64,000 bases of DNA from Planctomyces sp. GTDB taxonomy: Bacteria; Planctomycetota; Planctomycetia; Planctomycetales; Planctomycetaceae. The stretch lies in assembly GCA_019636235.1 (NCBI GenBank), contig JAHBXW010000021.1:1-64000 (forward strand). Direction: 5' to 3'. Shown piece by piece: positions 5,253 through 61,971 of this stretch (position 1 is the stretch's first letter; each line of letters starts with the position of its first letter). The position numbers and the translations under genes were made by a program. Below the pieces are notes generated by a model. The model saw nothing but the letters and a program-made list of their open reading frames with translations, was not told the origin of the DNA and made no database searches.

Positions 5253-5372
5253 GTGAGGAATTGACGCAGGCTCGGTCAGTGTTCTCCGTGTCGCGGATCG
5301 CGGCACATGAGTTGCCAAAGGCTCATTGCACGGGCGGATTGCTGCCCGACACTCCCTCGGAGCCGGTCCCGC

Positions 5373-7988
5373 ATGCCTCCCCGTTTCGACAAGTACACCG
5401 TCAAGGCTCAGGAAGCCGTCCAAACCGCGCAGCACCTCGCCAGCGAGAAGGGGCATCGCCAGCTCTTGCCGCTGCACCTCTTGTCCGGCCTGATTGAGCA
5501 GCGTGAGGGCATTGTCCGGCCGCTGCTGCAAAAAATCGGCGTCAACGTCGGCCAGCTGGAATCGCTCATCGCCAGCGAGTTGGGCCGCCTGCCGTCGTCG
5601 TCGGGTTCGAACCTGGGCCTGTCGCTGTCGAGCGAACTGGACCGGGTGTTCGATGCTGCGCAGAAGCAGGCGGACCAGATGAAGGATCAGTTCGTCTCCA
5701 CGGAGCACTTGCTGCTCGGGCTGACGAAGGTCGACGACGCGGCCAAACGGCTGCTGCACGTGAACGGAGTCGAGGAGAGCGACATTCTGAACGCCCTGCA
5801 GAGCGTGCGCGGCAGCCAGCAGGTCACCGATCAGAACCCGGAGGACAAGTACCAGGCGCTGGAGAAGTACGGGAAGGATCTGGTGGCGCTGGCCCGTCAG
5901 GGGCGAATCGATCCCGTCGTGGGACGGGACTCCGAGATTCGCCGGGTGATTCAGATTCTGTCGCGGCGCACCAAGAACAATCCCGTGCTGGTCGGCGAGC
6001 CGGGCGTGGGCAAGACGGCGATCGTCGAGGGCATCGCGCACCGGATCGTTTCGGGCGATGTGCCGCAGGGGCTGAAGGACAAGGCGCTGATCGCGCTCGA
6101 CATGGGCGCGCTGATCGCCGGGGCGAAGTATCGGGGCGAATTCGAAGACCGGCTGAAGGCAGTCGTCAAAGAGGTCACCGATTCCAACGGGCAGGTGATC
6201 CTGTTCATCGACGAGCTGCACACGGTCGTCGGCGCCGGGAAGGCCGAAGGAGCGATGGACGCCTCGAACCTGCTCAAGCCCGCGCTGGCCCGCGGCGAGC
6301 TGCACTGCATCGGCGCGACGACGTTGAACGAGTACCGGCTGCACATCGAGAAGGACCCGGCACTCGAGCGCCGCTTCCAGCCGGTGATGGTCCAGGAGCC
6401 GAACGTCGAGGACACGATTTCCATCCTCCGCGGCCTGAAGGAGCGTTACGAGTCGCACCACGGCGTCCGGATCACCGACGATGCGATCCTCGCCGCGGCT
6501 TCGCTCTCGGACCGCTACATCAACGACCGGTTTCTGCCGGATAAGGCGATCGACCTCGTCGACGAGGCGGCCTCGCGGCTGCGGATGGAGATCGACTCCA
6601 TGCCCGTCGAGATCGATGAGGCGACGCGGCAGTTGACGCGGATGCAGATCGAGGCCGCCGCCATGGCGCAGGAGAAGAGCGCCGAAAGCAAGGAACGGCT
6701 GGCCGAACTGCAGCGGGAGATTTCCACCCGGGAGGAGGAGGTCGCCGCGCTGAAAGCCCGCTGGCAGGCCGAAAAGGAAGTCCTGTCCGGGCTCAAGCCG
6801 CTGCAGGAGCAGATCGAAAAACTCCGCGCGGACTACGACCGGGCATTCGCCCGGGCCCGGGAGACGAACGACAACGAGGACTATCTCCGCGCCCACGAAG
6901 CGCAGGTCGCGCTGTCCGCAGCCGAACAGAAGCTGGACGAAGCCAAGAAACGCTTCGACGAAATGCAGCAGTCCGGCGGCGAGCCGCTGCTCCGCGAGGA
7001 GGTCACCCCCGAAGACATCGCCAAGGTCGTCAGCACCTGGACGGGCATCCCCGTGGCGCGGATGCTGCAGACCGAGCGTCAGAAGCTGCTGGAGATGGAG
7101 GACCGCATCCATCAGCGGATGATCAACCAGGAGGAGGCCGTCACGGCGGTGGCCAACGCGGTGCGACGGTCGCGTTCCGGGCTGCAGGACCGGCAGCGGC
7201 CGATCGGTTCGTTCATCTTTCTGGGGCCGACAGGCGTCGGCAAAACGGAACTCTGCAAGGCGCTGGCCGAGTTCCTGTTCGACGATGAACGCCACATGAT
7301 CCGCATCGACATGAGCGAGTTCATGGAGCCGCACTCGGTGGCCCGCCTGATCGGAGCGCCTCCGGGATACGTCGGCTACGAGGAAGGGGGCCGGCTGACC
7401 GAAGCCGTACGTCGGCAGCCCTACTCCGTCGTGTTGCTCGATGAGATCGAGAAAGCGCACCGGGATGTGTTCAACGTCCTGCTGCAGGTGCTGGACGACG
7501 GCCGGCTGACCGACGGACACGGCCGGACGGTGGACTTCAGCAATACGATCGTCGTGATGACGTCGAACATCGGCTCGCAGGCGATCCTGGAACTGGCCGA
7601 GGAAGGGGACGAAGCGGAGATTCGCCGTGTGTGTATGGAGGCGCTGCGGCAGCGGTTCCTGCCCGAGTTCCTGAACCGGATCGACGACGTGATCGTGTTC
7701 CATCCGCTCGACCGCGGCGACCTGCGGAAGATCGTGGACCTGCAACTGCAGCGGCTGGCCCGGCAGATGGAGGAGCACGGCTACCGGCTGGAGGTGTCGG
7801 AGGGGGCCCGCACGGTTCTGGCGAACGAGGGGTACGATCCGCAGTACGGTGCGCGGCCGATGCGGCGGGTGATACAGAACCGACTCCAGAACGCGCTGGC
7901 GAATGCGATCCTGACGGGTGAGTTCCCGGAGGGATCGACGATCGACATCGACGTTCAGCACGGCGAGTTCACATTCGCCCGGAAGTGA
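5373..7988 (+). CDS. clpB: ATP-dependent disaggregase ClpB
   Basis: An 871-residue Hsp100 chaperone that, with DnaK, rescues aggregated proteins in the cytoplasm. Visible parts in order: the Clp-N repeat domain (residues 1-150, '[16 protein letters not shown]'); AAA-1 with Walker A 'GEPGVGKTA' and Walker B '[13 protein letters not shown]'; the coiled-coil M-domain (about residues 400-535, many Glu/Lys/Arg heptads); AAA-2 with Walker A 'GPTGVGKTE' and '[10 protein letters not shown]'; and the C-terminal D2-small domain ending near '[18 protein letters not shown]'. The M-domain marks it as ClpB rather than ClpC. The ATG at 5373 gives the usual '[15 protein letters not shown]' start. Length is normal for the family. 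It is preceded by palindromic elements that may control heat induction. Confidence 0.97.
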
Positions 7989-56959: not shown

Positions 56960-58480
56960 ATGACGCCACTGCCGGTCGCCTGGACAGAAGGGATGTTCCT
57001 GCGGCCGCAGCACTTTCAGGCGGCGGACCGGCACTGGGCGGCGGAACTCGCGGACGCCATCCACTGGCACCACCCGTTCAGCTACGGCATCTCCGCGATT
57101 TCATTCAGCGAAGACGCGATTCGCAACTCGCAGTTCGAATTGACGTCGTGCGACGTTCGCTTCCGGGACGGCACGGCGGTGCGGATCGGCCAGGGGTTGG
57201 ACCGGCTGGACCTGAAAGCGGCATTTCAGGAGCGGGCGACGGTGCGGGTCTGCCTGGCGGCGCCGCGGATGGCGAACGGCGTGGCCAACCTGGGCCTGCC
57301 CGGCACGGCCGACCTCGCGCGATTCCACGAGGTGTCGGTTGAGGAGCCGGATGAGAACGCCGGCGGCAATGAGCAGTCAGTCTCGTACCGACATCTCAAC
57401 GTCCGGCTGTGTCTGGACAGCGACAACCTCAGCGGGTTTGAGATTCTGCCCATCGCGCAGATTCGCCGGCTGGGGGACCGGGAGGGGACGCCGGAACTCG
57501 ATGCCCGGTACGCGCCTCCGCTGCTGTCGGCGGACGGCTGGCCCGAGCTTCAACGCGACCTGGTGCGGGGCGTGCATGACCTGTTGGGGCGCAAGATCGA
57601 CCTGGTGAGCCAGCAGGTGCGCAGCCGGGGCATCACGCTGGCGGCCCGGGAGCCGGGGGACCTCGAACGGCTGTTCATGCTGCAGGTGCTGAACTCGGCC
57701 GAGGCGTCGCTGGGGGCGCTGGCATACGCCCCACGGATGCATCCGTTCCCGTTGTATGCCGAGTTGTGCCGGATCGTCGGGCAATTGTCGGTCTTTTCGC
57801 CGCAGCGGCGGTCGACGGACATCCCGCGTTACGATCACGATGATGTGCTGCCGATCTTCCGGGAACTGCGTCAGCGGATTGAATCGCTGATCCAGGTGCT
57901 GGGAGAATACGAATTTGAGCAACGGGCGTTTGTCGGCTTTGGGCGTGGCCTGCGGGTGTCGCTGGAGCCGAAGTGGCTGGAGCGGGAGTGGGAGTGGTTC
58001 GTCGGAGTGTCGTCGAACCAGTCGCACGACCTGGTGCGGCAGTTGATCACGCGACTGGACTGGAAGATCGGCAGCGCGGACCGGGTGGAGCACCTGTTTC
58101 AGCTCCGGGCGCGGGGGCTGGAGCAAATCGCGGACGTCAAACAGGTGCCCCGGGCGCTGCCTCCGGACAGCCAGTGGCTGTTCTACGAGGTGAACCGTTC
58201 GGGGCCGGAGTGGTTGCGGGCGGCCGAGACGCGGTCGCTGGGGATCCGTCTTCAGGAACAGATGATCATCAATATCCGGGAGCTGGAGGGTCAGGAAGAG
58301 GTGGTTGTGAAGACCGATGCGGGGCCGATCACGCTGACGTTCAGCCTGTTCGCCGTGCCCGTGCGATCCGGCCTGTCAGGCTCGGCCGCGGGCGCTGCGC
58401 CGGTTCCGGCGGCCCCCGGCTCGACGCCTCCGCCGCCTCCGCCCCGCCCGGCCTACCCGCCCCCGCCGATGAAACGCTGA
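56960..58480 (+). CDS. tssK: Type VI secretion baseplate protein TssK
   Basis: A 506-residue protein with the TssK opening 'PVAWTEGMFLRPQHFQAADR' and further signatures: 'LARFHEVSVEEPDENA', 'QVLNSAEASLGALAYAPRMH' with 'HPFPLYAELCRIVGQLSVFS', and 'DSQWLFYEVNRSGPEWLRAA'. TssK joins the type VI baseplate to the TssL-TssM membrane complex. The C-terminal 50 residues are a Pro/Ala tail (PPPPPPRPAYPPPP) absent from standard TssK (about 445 aa), which may be disordered. The ATG at 56960 is preferred over a TTG nine bases earlier. Confidence 0.9.
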   Translation: MTPLPVAWTEGMFLRPQHFQAADRHWAAELADAIHWHHPFSYGISAISFSEDAIRNSQFELTSCDVRFRDGTAVRIGQGLDRLDLKAAFQERATVRVCLAAPRMANGVANLGLPGTADLARFHEVSVEEPDENAGGNEQSVSYRHLNVRLCLDSDNLSGFEILPIAQIRRLGDREGTPELDARYAPPLLSADGWPELQRDLVRGVHDLLGRKIDLVSQQVRSRGITLAAREPGDLERLFMLQVLNSAEASLGALAYAPRMHPFPLYAELCRIVGQLSVFSPQRRSTDIPRYDHDDVLPIFRELRQRIESLIQVLGEYEFEQRAFVGFGRGLRVSLEPKWLEREWEWFVGVSSNQSHDLVRQLITRLDWKIGSADRVEHLFQLRARGLEQIADVKQVPRALPPDSQWLFYEVNRSGPEWLRAAETRSLGIRLQEQMIINIRELEGQEEVVVKTDAGPITLTFSLFAVPVRSGLSGSAAGAAPVPAAPGSTPPPPPPRPAYPPPPMKR

Positions 58481-58529
58481 CTCGCGGCGACCCCTTACGC
58501 AACGGACGGCACACGCATCGCATCGACTG

Positions 58530-59201
58530 ATGACACCACGATTCTCCAAAGCCGTCGACCCGATCTTCATGCACGTGATCCGCACGTTGGACCGGATCGA
58601 GCGGCATGAGGAGCTGAACCCGCATCTCGAACAGGCGGCGATTCAGTCGCGGATCGAGCGGGCTGAATCGGAACTCGGCGGCTCCCCCGAGTGGCAGCTC
58701 GCGAAGTACGCGCTCGTCGCCTGGATCGACGACGCGATGATCTTCGCTGAGTGGTCCGGCAATCGCTGGTGGCAGGAGAACCCGCTGGAGGTCGTCATCT
58801 ACCGGGAGCGCGTGGCGGCGTACAAGTTCTTTCAGGACGCCAAGGAGGCCGCCGCGGCGCAGCTCAAGGACGCCCTGGAGGTGTTCTACGTCTGCGTGAT
58901 GCTGGGCTTTTACGGCGCCTACCGGCCGGAGGCGTTCGGCGCGCGGGACCAGGACGAGCATCGCCTGTTCCTGCGGCAGTACGACCTGCCGCCGACGCGC
59001 GAAGCCTGGGCCAAACAGACGCGGACGTACCTGCGGCTGCAGCAGGGACGCCCGAAGATCTCCGTCAACCCGCGGGAGGGCAACTTTGCCCCGCCGCTGG
59101 AGGATAAGTTCGCCGCCATCAGCGGCTGGCTGCTGGCCAGCGTCCTCCTGGCCGCGGTGTTCTTCCTCGGCTGGTACCTGTTTCCGCCGACTGGATCGTA
59201 G
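58530..59201 (+). CDS. tssL: DotU/TssL-type type VI secretion protein
   Basis: A 223-residue membrane protein. It opens 'FSKAVDPIFMHVIRTLDRIE' and carries 'QLAKYALVAWIDDAMIFAEW', 'WWQENPLEVVIYRERVAAYK' and 'EVFYVCVMLGFYGAYRPEAF', the helical cytoplasmic hook domain of DotU/TssL. A single C-terminal transmembrane helix is seen at about 197-217. No peptidoglycan-binding extension follows it. It starts 49 bases after tssK and ends three bases before tssM. Confidence 0.9.
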   Translation: MTPRFSKAVDPIFMHVIRTLDRIERHEELNPHLEQAAIQSRIERAESELGGSPEWQLAKYALVAWIDDAMIFAEWSGNRWWQENPLEVVIYRERVAAYKFFQDAKEAAAAQLKDALEVFYVCVMLGFYGAYRPEAFGARDQDEHRLFLRQYDLPPTREAWAKQTRTYLRLQQGRPKISVNPREGNFAPPLEDKFAAISGWLLASVLLAAVFFLGWYLFPPTGS

Positions 59202-59204
59202 CCC

Positions 59205-60887
59205 ATGTTGACGCAGTTCCTGAAAGACCTGTTCGACCGCCTCACGTGGCCGATCCGCCGGGTCGTCTCGGCGCCGATGACGCTGTTCTCGGCTCCGCGG
59301 TTGAAGTTCGGGTTTTCGCTGCCGGTGCGGCTGGCGGTGTTCGCGTTTCTGTTTCTGCTGATCTGCGTGATCGTGGGCTACTGCCTGTTCCACTTCGGTC
59401 CCAACCGGACCGAGCGGGAATCGGTGTGGGACTTCAAGCAGTTCCTGGTCGTCTCGGTGCTGCTGATCGTCATCCCGCTGCTGGTGCACCGGCTGACGTG
59501 GATGTGGCTGGACGGGGAGACGTCGCGTTACCCTGACATCGATGCCGCGTGGAAGGCGGGGCTGAAGGCGCTCAAGGACCAGGGGCAGGACCTTTGCGAC
59601 CTGCCGTTGTTTCTGGTGATGGGTCCGGCGGACGCGCGTCAGGCGCAGGCCATGATGCAGGCGTCGGGGCGGAATTTCTCGATCAGCGGCGTGCCGGATG
59701 CGGCCGCTCCCCTGCACTGGTTCTGCGATTCCGAAGCGGCGTTTCTGGTGCTCACCGGGACGACCCGCGTCGCCGCGCTGGCCACGCTGACTCCGAACGT
59801 GACGATCGCGTCCCCCGGCCGCCCCGCGCCGGCATCGCCGGCGAAGGGGTTGTTCACGGCGACGGCCGAGTTGCCCTCCGACTCGATGATCGTCGAATCG
59901 GACATGGCCCCGGCCCCCGCGCCCTCGGCGCCTGCCCCCGCGGGGCGTCACAACATGACGCTCCAGGCCGACAACGATCAGTGGAATGAACTTTCCCCGA
60001 CCGGCTCCGTGAATCGCGCCGGACAGATTGAACGCATTGCGGCCCTGCCGGACGCCCGGGCCCGCGACATCGATGTCCGCCTGGGGCATGTCCTGCATCT
60101 GATCCGCGCCGCGCGGCAGCCCTATTGCCCGATCAACGGCGTCCTCAGCGCCCTGCCGTTCCACCTGATCCTCGCGGGGGACGCGCAGTCGGTCGAACTT
60201 CAGAAGGCCGTCCGCGCCGACCTGGACCTGGTGCAGTCGACGCTGCAGCTCCGCTGCCCGGTGTCGGTGCTCGTGGGCGGCATGGAAACGGAATCAGGCT
60301 TCCGCGTTCTGGCCCGCCGCATCGGTCGCGAGAAGGTTAAATCCAGCCGGTTCGGCAAGGGGAACGACAGCCTCTGGACGCCCGCCACTCCGGACAACAT
60401 CGAGGCCATTTCCCGGAACGCCTGCGGCGCGTTCGAGGACTGGGTGTACCACCTGTTCAGCGCGGCCGACGGCCTGACCCGGACCGACAACGGCAAGCTG
60501 TACTCCATCCTCTGCCTGGTCCGGACCCAGTTGCAGGAGCGATTGACGAACCTGCTGTGCGGGGCGTACGGCCGCGACAACGAGGAGGCCATGCTGTTCT
60601 CCGGCTGCTACTTCGGAGCGACGGGAGACCAGGAGGACCGGCAGGCGTTCGTCAAAGGAGTGTTCGACAAGCTGGCCGAGCAGGAAGAGCAGTTGTCGTG
60701 GATGCCCGAGGCGCTCGATGAGAATGAGCGCTACACGCGGATGGCGCGGATCGCCAACACGCTGAATCTGGGGCTGATCGTCCTGCTCGTCCTGATGGGA
60801 CTGTCGATTCCCCTGGGGTATCGGGACAATCTTCAGCAGCTGATTCCCTGGGCGCGGGGAACCGGGTCCCCCTCGGAGCAGCCGTGA
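59205..60887 (+). CDS. tssM: Short TssM (IcmF) homologue with degenerate P-loop and no periplasmic domain
   Basis: A 560-residue protein about half the size of normal TssM. Two transmembrane helices (about 43-62 and 80-98) are followed by a cytoplasmic domain whose start 'LPLFLVMGPADARQAQAM' aligns with the TssM nucleotide-binding loop but lacks GxGKT. Further TssM-like segments are 'APLHWFCDSEAAFLVLTG', 'RQPYCPINGVLSALPFHLIL' and 'FEDWVYHLFSAADGLTRTDN'. A third transmembrane helix (about 527-545) is followed by only 15 residues, so the large periplasmic domain is absent. Stop and start of the next gene overlap (TGATG). Confidence 0.82.
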   Translation: MLTQFLKDLFDRLTWPIRRVVSAPMTLFSAPRLKFGFSLPVRLAVFAFLFLLICVIVGYCLFHFGPNRTERESVWDFKQFLVVSVLLIVIPLLVHRLTWMWLDGETSRYPDIDAAWKAGLKALKDQGQDLCDLPLFLVMGPADARQAQAMMQASGRNFSISGVPDAAAPLHWFCDSEAAFLVLTGTTRVAALATLTPNVTIASPGRPAPASPAKGLFTATAELPSDSMIVESDMAPAPAPSAPAPAGRHNMTLQADNDQWNELSPTGSVNRAGQIERIAALPDARARDIDVRLGHVLHLIRAARQPYCPINGVLSALPFHLILAGDAQSVELQKAVRADLDLVQSTLQLRCPVSVLVGGMETESGFRVLARRIGREKVKSSRFGKGNDSLWTPATPDNIEAISRNACGAFEDWVYHLFSAADGLTRTDNGKLYSILCLVRTQLQERLTNLLCGAYGRDNEEAMLFSGCYFGATGDQEDRQAFVKGVFDKLAEQEEQLSWMPEALDENERYTRMARIANTLNLGLIVLLVLMGLSIPLGYRDNLQQLIPWARGTGSPSEQP

Positions 60888-61264
60888 TGGATCCTCTCTC
60901 CGCGCAGCCGAACGACTTCGCCGGAGCCTCCGGGACGTCCCCCGAAGCGCGCGAGGAGTCGATGCTCGACGCGGTGCTGGACCGCACGCAGGCGGATCGT
61001 TCGGAAAGCCTGCGGCCGGAGCACGTGGCGGCACTGCGGGAAATCGCCCGTCGGCGCTCGGGCGAAGAAGCCTGTTCGCCGGAAGCGGTCCGCGAGATCG
61101 TGGAGGTGCTGGTCCGCGACATGTGGTCGGCGATGGGCGTACGGTTCTCGGACGCCTGGACGCGGAGCGTCGCCGTGGACATCGCGGACACGCTGTCGGA
61201 CGACGAGCGCTCGCTGCAGCGGATCAATGCGTTCTGGGCCGACCTGCGGAAGGGCGCGGTCTGA
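60887..61264 (+). CDS. Small protein of unknown function in the tss operon
   Basis: A 125-residue acidic, helix-rich protein with no recognised domain. Its ATG overlaps the tssM stop (TGATG), and it ends two bases before the start of the sigma factor gene, so it is translated as part of the same mRNA. A role as an adaptor, chaperone or anti-sigma factor is possible purely from position; none of these is shown by sequence. Confidence 0.75.
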   Translation: MDPLSAQPNDFAGASGTSPEAREESMLDAVLDRTQADRSESLRPEHVAALREIARRRSGEEACSPEAVREIVEVLVRDMWSAMGVRFSDAWTRSVAVDIADTLSDDERSLQRINAFWADLRKGAV

Positions 61265-61266
61265 CC

Positions 61267-61971
61267 ATGTCCACCCGCCGCCCTCCGCTGTCGAACGAGC
61301 TGATCCAGGGGTCGCAGGGCCTCGTGCGGATGCTTGCGCTGCGGCTGCACAAGCGGTTCCACGAGCGGTACGAGCTGGACGACCTGATCGCGTTTGGGCA
61401 GGTGGGCCTGGCGCAGGCCGCGAAGTCGTTCGACCCGCTGCAGGAGCTGCAGTTCTCCACGTACGCCTACTACCGGATCCGGGGCGCGATCTACGAAGGC
61501 ATCGAGAAGATGGGCTGGGGACCGCGCTCGCAGTTCCGGAGGCGCAAGTTCCTCCAGAAGGCCAGCGAGCTGCTCGAGCAGCATTCCCAGCCCTCATCCG
61601 AAACGCCGACTGACGACCGCCGCTGGCTGGGGGGCGTGACCCAGCAACTCGTGGTGATGTCGTTCGCGACGCTGGAGTTCTCGGAGGATGCGGCGGTCGA
61701 CAGCCGACCGGGCCTGGACCCGCAGGACCTGATCGCGGCCCGCGAGGTGCATCAGCGGCTGCGGCAGCTCGTGGCGCGACTGCCGGACGAGCCGCGGCGG
61801 CTGATCGAGGCGATGTACTTTGAAGGCTGCTCGCTGCAGGAGGCGGCCGGGCAACTGCAGATCAGCAAGGGCTGGGCCAGCCGGTTGCACAGCCGGGCGC
61901 TGTCGCGGCTGGGGAACGATCTGCGGGGGATGGGGCTGGCGGATGAATCGGGCGTGCGGTCGGCCGTCTGA
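61267..61971 (+). CDS. FliA/WhiG-like sigma-70 family sigma factor linked to tss genes
   Basis: A 234-residue sigma factor with region 2 ('YELDDLIAFGQVGLAQAAKS', 'FSTYAYYRIRGAIYEGIEKM') and region 4 ('LIEAMYFEGCSLQEAAGQLQ', 'SKGWASRLHSRALSRL'). It is larger than a minimal ECF factor and more FliA/WhiG-like, with a variable region between (about residues 90-165). Its place at the end of the tssK-tssL-tssM unit suggests that it controls secretion genes, here or elsewhere on the chromosome. Confidence 0.85.
   Translation: MSTRRPPLSNELIQGSQGLVRMLALRLHKRFHERYELDDLIAFGQVGLAQAAKSFDPLQELQFSTYAYYRIRGAIYEGIEKMGWGPRSQFRRRKFLQKASELLEQHSQPSSETPTDDRRWLGGVTQQLVVMSFATLEFSEDAAVDSRPGLDPQDLIAAREVHQRLRQLVARLPDEPRRLIEAMYFEGCSLQEAAGQLQISKGWASRLHSRALSRLGNDLRGMGLADESGVRSAV

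What the first reader, a model, noticed from the sequence alone, without database searches (positions are those of the whole stretch)
56960..61971. Reduced type VI-like TssK-TssL-TssM unit with its own sigma factor
Five genes packed within 5 kb (gaps of 49, 3, -1 and 2 bases) encode TssK, DotU/TssL, a half-size TssM, a 125-residue unknown and a sigma factor. The flanking genes are unrelated, so the sheath, tube, VgrG and ClpV parts lie elsewhere or are absent. TssK, TssL and TssM are the parts that bridge baseplate and membrane; a stand-alone bridge coupled to a sigma factor would be an unusual contractile-injection variant or a repurposed membrane platform.
Basis: partly seen in the sequence, partly recalled or inferred. 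Interest (0 to 1): 0.78.

Follow-up and report, generated by a model that had tools for sequence, protein, structure and literature searches.

The report
Split type VI system, half-size TssM
These five genes are one arm of a complete bacterial type VI injection machine whose other parts lie elsewhere in the same genome, and the machine belongs to a planctomycete lineage whose TssM protein has lost the part that normally crosses the cell envelope.

Summary
In detail: TssK, TssL, a 560-residue TssM, a 125-residue unknown and a sigma factor, with gaps of 49, 3, -1 and 2 bases. The stand-alone reading is wrong. The window's genome (99.99% complete) has one TssK, here, and a second locus (C7:46732-68923) with TssA, B, C1, C2, TagJ, E, F, G, ClpV, two Hcp, VgrG, FHA and PAAR. 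In 21 of 58 related loci K-L-M and A-B-C lie in one stretch, 16 of them with the 125-residue and sigma genes between TssM and TssA. What is unusual: TssM stops just after its last membrane helix (49 of 49 complete genes) and lacks Walker A (0 of 39, against 10 of 10 long relatives); these systems form one clade by TssK. The sigma factor's ortholog is in 32 of 45 TssK-positive and 0 of 34 TssK-negative genomes tested. No TssJ was found, but that test is weak. A ~1,500-residue single-helix protein beside TssK in 20 of 32 loci may replace the missing periplasmic part; this is inference.

The parts
56960..58480 (+). tssK, baseplate-to-membrane adaptor; the only TssK found in the genome
   Evidence: TIGR03353 276.6 bits, PF05936 249.2 bits; single hit in the genome
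58530..59201 (+). tssL (DotU), inner-membrane protein with one hydrophobic helix near the C-terminus (residues 195-213)
   Evidence: PF09850 93.1 bits; hydropathy
59205..60887 (+). half-size tssM: three hydrophobic helices (43-61, 80-98, 520-538), GTPase-like cytoplasmic domain without Walker A, 22-residue tail in place of the periplasmic domain
   Evidence: PF14331 45 bits; hhalign to columns 89-433 of 1457 of full-length TssMs, probability 99, E 9e-18; hydropathy; no Walker A; AlphaFold model pLDDT 82.9, best GTPase match Z 11.7, 3.7 A, 171 residues
60887..61264 (+). 125-residue protein without hydrophobic helix, function unknown; its ATG overlaps the tssM stop; directly 5' of the sigma gene wherever the sigma gene was found in the named loci
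   Evidence: 23 of 23 named loci with a sigma hit have it directly upstream; alignment A8; in 24 members only seven single-member Pfam matches, best E 0.012
61267..61971 (+). T6SS-linked sigma factor, sigma-70 family, nearest to FliA/WhiG
   Evidence: TIGR02479 101 bits, below cut-off; ortholog (131 bits or more) in 32 of 45 TssK-positive and 0 of 34 TssK-negative genomes, all other hits under 62 bits; followed by TssA in 16 of 20 named loci with room

Best explanation
The block is the docking arm of one complete, split type VI secretion system of a planctomycete class (Planctomycetia by the names of its relatives). Shown: the canonical parts other than TssJ and the TssM periplasmic domain are in this genome, at two loci; in relatives these loci are one cluster; in every complete copy examined in the class TssM is reduced to its inner-membrane and cytoplasmic part, with the nucleotide-binding loop lost; in the 80 genomes tested the sigma ortholog occurs only where TssK does. 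Inferred: TssL and the short TssM form an inner-membrane platform; TssK ties the TssE/F/G-VgrG baseplate to it; the TssB/C sheath and Hcp tube, primed by TssA, grow on it and fire, and ClpV recycles the sheath. The sigma factor, with the neighbouring 125-residue protein as partner or inhibitor, switches on the scattered T6SS genes together. Something other than TssM must carry the tube across the periplasm. My candidate is a ~1,500-residue protein with one N-terminal membrane helix, a helical part and a row of strand-rich domains, encoded beside TssK in many relatives and at C42:236983-241743 here.
For: Single TssK; TssC x2 and TssF on C7; the rest of C7 named by curated profiles. TssK/TssC co-occurrence 47 of 48 against 0 of 7. 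Synteny in 58 named loci: K-L-M adjacent in 40 of 42 with room; K,L,M and A,B,C in one locus in 21 of 58; sigma followed by TssA in 16 of 20 with room. Class sample of 297 genomes: TssK 120, tblastn match to the short TssM 123, both 116; among the matches listed no open frame exceeds 962 residues, against 1,359-1,534 for the ten full-length TssMs aligned in A3. Short TssM: 49 of 49 complete open frames end 0-53 residues (median 5) after the last hydrophobic helix. Walker A 0 of 39 and 0 of 25 against 10 of 10. One clade by TssK, support 100/99. Sigma ortholog 32 of 45 against 0 of 34, Fisher p 6e-12 without correction for kinship. Large protein: divergent from TssK in 20 of 32 loci with TssK and at least 4 kb held upstream (counted by eye); full-length ortholog in this genome.
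Against: No expression or secretion data. Sigma ortholog absent from 13 of 45 TssK-positive genomes, and the 125aa-sigma pair follows TssM in only 21 of 52 loci with room. A scan of 47 upstream stretches for a sigma-28-type promoter found nothing above shuffles (mean 8.30 against 8.37). Absence of TssJ is weakly tested: of four TssJ-like lipoproteins of other classes two missed PF12790 and two scored below its cut-off. A separate gene for the TssM C-terminal part cannot be excluded by profile. The large protein shows no profile similarity to TssM, is not beside TssK in 12 of 32 loci, and in this genome sits on a third contig.
Confidence: 0.9

Rival explanations
1. A stand-alone TssK-TssL-TssM platform repurposed for something other than injection.
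For: In the window alone no tail parts were seen next to the block; the tail genes are at least 74 kb away.
Against: Tail, sheath, spike and ATPase genes exist in the same genome, which has no other TssK; TssC is present in 47 of 48 TssK-positive genomes; the arms are joined in relatives.
Confidence: 0.03
2. The short TssM is an artefact: a broken gene, a sequencing error, or a gene read on by transcriptional slippage, as in Citrobacter rodentium.
For: A precedent exists for a tssM gene interrupted by a stop and rescued by slippage on a run of 11 adenosines (PMC4256274, abstract).
Against: 49 of 49 complete genes, many from different organisms, end at the same architectural point; near the stop there is no run of A (the longest run is five C), and the next gene's ATG overlaps the stop codon.
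Confidence: 0.03
3. No periplasmic replacement exists: the system is anchored only at the inner membrane, and the tube is pushed through the periplasm and outer membrane without a TssM/TssJ channel.
For: The large candidate protein is missing beside TssK in 12 of 32 loci and shows no similarity to TssM. A review states that T6SSiv lacks TssJLM altogether (PMC10433429, passages).
Against: The large protein is full length and T6SS-linked in many members; the Acinetobacter precedent shows that a lost envelope part can be replaced by new proteins (PMC10564176, abstract).
Confidence: 0.35
4. The sigma factor sits in the cluster but mainly controls other genes.
For: Absent from 13 of 45 TssK-positive genomes; no shared promoter motif found.
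Against: 0 of 34 TssK-negative genomes tested have an ortholog; it lies between TssM and TssA in 16 of the 21 joined clusters.
Confidence: 0.15

Closest known systems
T6SSi, canonical type VI secretion system (TssA-M)
   Same: Sheath, tube, spike, baseplate and ATPase parts, TssA, TssK and TssL are present.
   Different: TssM lacks the periplasmic domain and the Walker A motif; no TssJ detected (weak test); genes split over contigs; sigma factor in the cluster.
T6SS of Rhodopirellula baltica
   Same: Gene order K-L-M-125aa-sigma-A-B-C-C-TagJ-E-F-G in L134. Boyer et al. 2009 named R. baltica as one of two non-proteobacterial species with a T6SS cluster (PMC2660368, passages); Boedeker et al. 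2017 found a high number of T6SS-related genes in it (PMC5394234, passages).
   Different: The passages seen do not mention a short TssM or this sigma factor; in R. baltica the two halves are joined, here they are apart.
T6SS of Acinetobacter baumannii
   Same: Non-canonical membrane complex without TssJ (PMC10564176, abstract).
   Different: There TssM has evolved an extra domain; here it has lost the whole periplasmic part.
T6SSiii (Bacteroidetes) and T6SSiv (Amoebophilus)
   Same: Trans-envelope complex replaced or missing (PMC4793230, PMC10433429, passages).
   Different: [quoted passage not shown] here TssL, the cytoplasmic TssM and ClpV are kept.
Xanthomonas citri EcfK/PknS-controlled T6SS
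   Same: A T6SS whose expression depends on a sigma factor encoded in its region (PMC8999054, passage).
   Different: EcfK is an ECF43 sigma factor; this one is nearest to FliA/WhiG.

Membership tests
Type VI secretion system (T6SS) | Contractile sheath TssB/TssC | tested here: met
   TIGR03358 204 bits (cut-off 97), TIGR03355 460 bits (cut-off 272) for TssC2; PF05943 twice on C7
Type VI secretion system (T6SS) | Tube and spike: Hcp, VgrG, PAAR | tested here: met
   PF05638 79 and 106 bits; TIGR03361 582 bits; PF05488 77 bits, each over its cut-off. One of the two Hcp is below the TIGR03344 cut-off (42 against 58.9) and the PAAR protein below NF033420's (39.8 against 124)
Type VI secretion system (T6SS) | Baseplate TssE, F, G, K | tested here: met
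   PF04965 73 bits, PF05947 638 bits, TIGR03347 288 bits, TIGR03353 277 bits
Type VI secretion system (T6SS) | ClpV/TssH ATPase | tested here: met
   TIGR03345 1263 bits (cut-off 885)
Type VI secretion system (T6SS) | TssA | tested here: met
   PF06812 76 bits (cut-off 27)
Type VI secretion system (T6SS) | TssL | tested here: met
   PF09850 93 bits (cut-off 27); below the TIGR03349 cut-off
T6SSi membrane complex (TssJLM) | TssM with periplasmic domain | tested here: not met
   Open frame ends 22 residues after the last hydrophobic helix; TIGR03348 18.8 bits against cut-off 388. PF06744 in 1 of 297 class genomes, but five full-length TssMs of other classes also miss PF06744, so that count is weak
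T6SSi membrane complex (TssJLM) | TssJ outer-membrane lipoprotein | tested here: inconclusive
   PF12790 in 0 of 297 class genomes; of four TssJ-like lipoproteins of other classes two missed PF12790 and two scored below its cut-off
TssM family | IcmF-related N-terminal domain with three membrane helices | tested here: met
   PF14331 45 bits (cut-off 25), one 83-residue stretch; hhalign E 9e-18 to full-length TssM; three hydrophobic helices
TssM family | Walker A motif | tested here: not met
   0 of 39 and 0 of 25 half-size members; 10 of 10 full-length outgroup members. Recalled, not from a call: the motif is not universal in canonical TssM either
FliA/WhiG sigma factors | TIGR02479 at its cut-off | tested here: not met
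   101 bits against 189.6; still the best-scoring model
T6SSiii | TssN, O, P, Q in place of the trans-envelope subcomplex | not tested
   TssL and a TssM are present, which T6SSiii lacks by the passages

The most novel reading that the evidence does not exclude
A whole bacterial class runs a type VI system with a divided membrane complex: an inner-membrane platform of TssL and a nucleotide-binding-dead, periplasm-less TssM, with the envelope-crossing role taken over by a separate ~1,500-residue protein (N-terminal membrane helix, caspase-like domain, helical part and a row of beta-rich domains), and with the machine switched on by a sigma factor of its own that is encoded inside the cluster.
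Probability: 0.3. Interest if true: 0.8.

Novelty: new variant of a known kind. Interest (0 to 1): 0.6.

Why it matters
In the model T6SS the TssM C-terminal domain is required for binding TssJ and for function (PMC4256274, abstract). A lineage in which the periplasmic part is gone from every complete copy examined (49 of 49) asks how much of the membrane complex is needed and what can replace it. It may also explain why standard models overlook these systems (inference): TssM falls far below its curated cut-off. The sigma factor offers a handle for switching such systems on in organisms whose antagonism is little studied.

Tried and rejected
Rejected: stand-alone platform; broken or slipping tssM.

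Weak or failed tests. PF06744 (1 of 297; the one hit, G289, has an open frame of 1382 aa and is in neither the TssK nor the short-TssM list) and PF12790 (0 of 297) looked like strong absences, but the control showed that five full-length TssMs and four TssJ-like proteins of other classes miss or barely reach the same profiles, so I do not rest on them. A profile of the TssM C-terminal part from other classes (A5), put to 45 genomes, found the two source genomes among them (G072, G108), one near relative (G139) and one doubtful hit (G022, E 2.5e-6), and missed the other outgroup genomes; it cannot exclude a separate TssM C-terminal gene. Sigma-28 promoter scan of 47 stretches: nothing; it used a recalled consensus and simple letter shuffles. 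The large-protein profile A4 hits 174 of 297 genomes, largely through its N-terminal part, so I count only matches over nearly the whole profile: 9 in the listed rows, all in TssK-positive genomes. None of six members of that family matched the Pfam caspase family; 'caspase-like' rests on similarity of the N-terminal part to the C7 paralogue, which does (25.2 bits, cut-off 21.4). Profile comparison of A4 with full-length TssM: none. PDB sequence searches: A2 none; A3 five weak; A4 generic helical and beta-rich chains. Foldseek on the short TssM model: best E 0.11; the GTPase-like fold comes from the second-look aligner, and no TssM structure was among the 50 rows shown in either list. Foldseek on the large protein: long beta-domain arrays with TM-scores near 0.1, only a general arrangement.

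Rows dropped and limits. Of 59 half-TssM rows (contig edge or under 500 aa) were left out of the 49; some of the 49 are near copies (Stieleria group). The 123 tblastn matches are at E up to 1e-3 and their lengths were not all checked. In the tree 33 of 49 half, 11 of 11 full and 20 of 26 'canonical' TssK rows were used; TssM length was not examined for the 'canonical' set, and two genes (G124, G169) stand in both the full and the canonical set; several long branches are flagged. For the sigma test I gave 44 of the 120 TssK-positive class genomes plus G050 and G319, and 34 of the 177 TssK-negative ones. Locus L100 is labelled Nealsonbacteria and is probably a mis-binned planctomycete contig.
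Full report
What is there. Profile searches support TssK strongly, TssL well, TssM only through the IcmF-related N-terminal domain, a sigma-70 factor nearest to FliA/WhiG, and no family for the 125-residue protein.

The rest of the machine is in the same genome. The window is contig C14:1-64000 of a 5.6 Mb draft in 45 contigs, 99.99% complete. One TssK was found, in the window. Two TssC and one TssF lie on contig C7. Gene calling and curated profiles give, at C7:46732-68923, TssA, TssB, TssC1, TssC2, TagJ/ImpE, TssE, TssF, TssG, ClpV (TIGR03345 1263 bits), a 1677-residue protein, two Hcp, VgrG, an FHA protein and PAAR. What C7 lacks among the usual parts is TssK, TssL, TssM and TssJ; the first three are the window block. 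Whatever the order of the contigs, at least 27.4 + 46.7 = 74 kb separate the two loci (contig lengths). The ClpV-like gene at 5307-7985 of the window is the housekeeping ClpB (TIGR03346 1312 bits, over its cut-off).

The same holds across relatives. In 199 genomes of the phylum 48 have TssK; 47 of the 48 have TssC, and none of 7 TssK-negative genomes put through the same call does (7 of 151). Splitting recurs: in a same-genus genome on one contig (G087) TssK-TssL, TssM, the 125aa-sigma pair, TssC and TssF are spread over about 45 kb; in G105 TssK is about 470 kb from TssL, TssM and TssA, B, C, E, F.

The joined form. A search of named genome contigs with a profile of the short TssM returned 58 loci, mostly labelled Pirellulales, Pirellulaceae, Planctomycetales or Planctomycetaceae. 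K-L-M are adjacent in 40 of 42 loci with room. K, L, M and A, B, C occur in one locus in 21 of 58; in 16 of these the 125aa and sigma genes lie between TssM and TssA. Where a sigma gene is found (23 loci) the 125-residue gene is directly upstream in 23 of 23, and TssA follows in 16 of 20 with room. Over all loci with room the pair follows TssM in 21 of 52. Rhodopirellula baltica (L134) and Stieleria (L118, L124) show K-L-M-125aa-sigma-A-B-C-C-TagJ-E-F-G. So the window block is the first half of such a cluster, cut between the sigma gene and TssA.

The short TssM. Its profile aligns with columns 89-433 of 1457 of full-length TssMs from other classes of the phylum (probability 99, E 9e-18). In 49 of 49 complete genes the protein ends 0 to 53 residues (median 5; 22 here) after the last hydrophobic helix. 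The Walker A motif is in 0 of 39 and 0 of 25 short TssMs (two alignments that share the window's row) and in 10 of 10 long ones. The AlphaFold model (pLDDT 82.9) has a GTPase-like core (EngB/YsxC, Z 11.7, 3.7 A over 171 residues), broken by a stretch without secondary structure at 196-282. In a class sample of 297 genomes 120 have TssK, 123 a tblastn match to the short TssM, 116 both; among the matches listed the longest open frame is 962 residues. By TssK the short-TssM systems form one clade (100/99), which fits a single loss. One genome outside the clade, G050, has a long TssM with Walker A together with the 125aa-sigma-TssA order, so the sigma pair may be older than the loss.

TssJ. No PF12790 match in 297 class genomes, but the control is poor. 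I treat TssJ as not found, not as absent.

The sigma factor. In 80 genomes the matches fall into two sets: 131 bits or more in 32 genomes, and under 62 bits for all other hits. All 32 are TssK-positive (of 45 given: 44 of the 120 class genomes, and G050); 0 of 34 TssK-negative genomes (of 177) reach it; nor does G319, which has a short TssM but no TssK hit. Fisher p 6e-12 takes no account of kinship. I infer that it serves the T6SS. The 125-residue protein has no hydrophobic helix and is joined to the sigma gene by overlap or close spacing; a regulatory partner is a guess. A promoter motif was not found.

A candidate for the missing part. In 20 of 32 loci with TssK and at least 4 kb held upstream, a divergent gene encodes a large protein; complete open frames run from about 1,450 to 1,650 residues. 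It has one N-terminal membrane helix, an N-terminal domain similar to the caspase-like part of the C7 paralogue (none of six members tested matched the Pfam caspase family itself), a helical part, and strand-rich C-terminal domains. The predicted core (pLDDT 73.3, pTM 0.51) shows helices over the first 325 residues and strands from 354 to 1163; one of six members passes the CarboxypepD_reg cut-off near its end. A basic N-terminus before the helix suggests that the bulk lies in the periplasm (inference). The 9 listed class-sample matches that cover nearly the whole profile are all in TssK-positive genomes. This genome's copy is at C42:236983-241743, away from both T6SS loci. It is unlike TssM in sequence. 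That it replaces the TssM periplasmic domain is the boldest reading I hold open, at about 0.3.

Known or new. A T6SS in R. baltica has been on record since 2009 (PMC2660368, passages), and T6SSs are mentioned for freshwater Planctomycetes (PMC6461901, passage). In searches for planctomycete T6SS with TssK, TssM, IcmF, membrane complex, sigma factor, Gemmata, Rhodopirellula or Pirellula and for truncated TssM, I saw no description of the short TssM or of this sigma factor; the library lacks most subscription papers and all bioRxiv preprints, and most hits were seen only as listings. Papers seen: PMC5394234, PMC6461901, PMC2660368, PMC4793230, PMC8999054 and PMC10433429 as passages; PMC4256274 and PMC10564176 as abstract and outline; the others in listings only. 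Known non-canonical membrane complexes (Acinetobacter without TssJ; T6SSiii and T6SSiv) differ as set out under Closest known systems.

Verdict. The finding is real but not stand-alone. It is a new variant of a known kind: a T6SS with a halved TssM and, most likely, its own sigma factor, spread over the genome.

Noticed in passing
G000 C7:58945-63978 (L053:8945-13978): 1677-residue protein with caspase (PF00656) and VWA (PF13519) matches between ClpV and Hcp; its N-terminal part is similar to the large TssK-linked family, so the genome has a distant paralogue inside the main T6SS cluster.
   Followed up: partly
G000 C7:48606-50099 and C7:50166-51695: Two different TssC sheath proteins in tandem (PF05943 446 and 359 bits), also seen in many of the named loci; perhaps a mixed sheath or two sheath types.
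   Followed up: no
G000 C7:44839-46551 (L052:14839-16551): Short SecA-like protein (570 aa; PF07517, PF21090, PF01043) directly before TssA; no other match among loci L032-L069.
   Followed up: no
G000 C7:31630-37062 (L052:1630-7062): 1810-residue protein that clusters with Ser/Thr-kinase-like proteins near T6SS genes in several relatives (kinase judged by eye); a possible phosphorylation input.
   Followed up: no
L039 (G050): Genome outside the class with a full-length TssM with Walker A, a lipoprotein-like gene upstream of TssK (TssJ-like by position only, no PF12790 match), and yet the 125aa-sigma-TssA order: a possible intermediate state.
   Followed up: partly
L114 and L127: In Schlesneria and Planctomicrobium loci an FHA gene lies at or after the end of TssM in place of the 125aa-sigma pair.
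   Followed up: no
L100: Contig labelled Candidatus Nealsonbacteria carries a typical planctomycete T6SS cluster; probably mis-binned.
   Followed up: no
window 5307-7985: Housekeeping ClpB; scores just below the cut-off for ClpV (838 against 885), so not part of the T6SS.
   Followed up: yes
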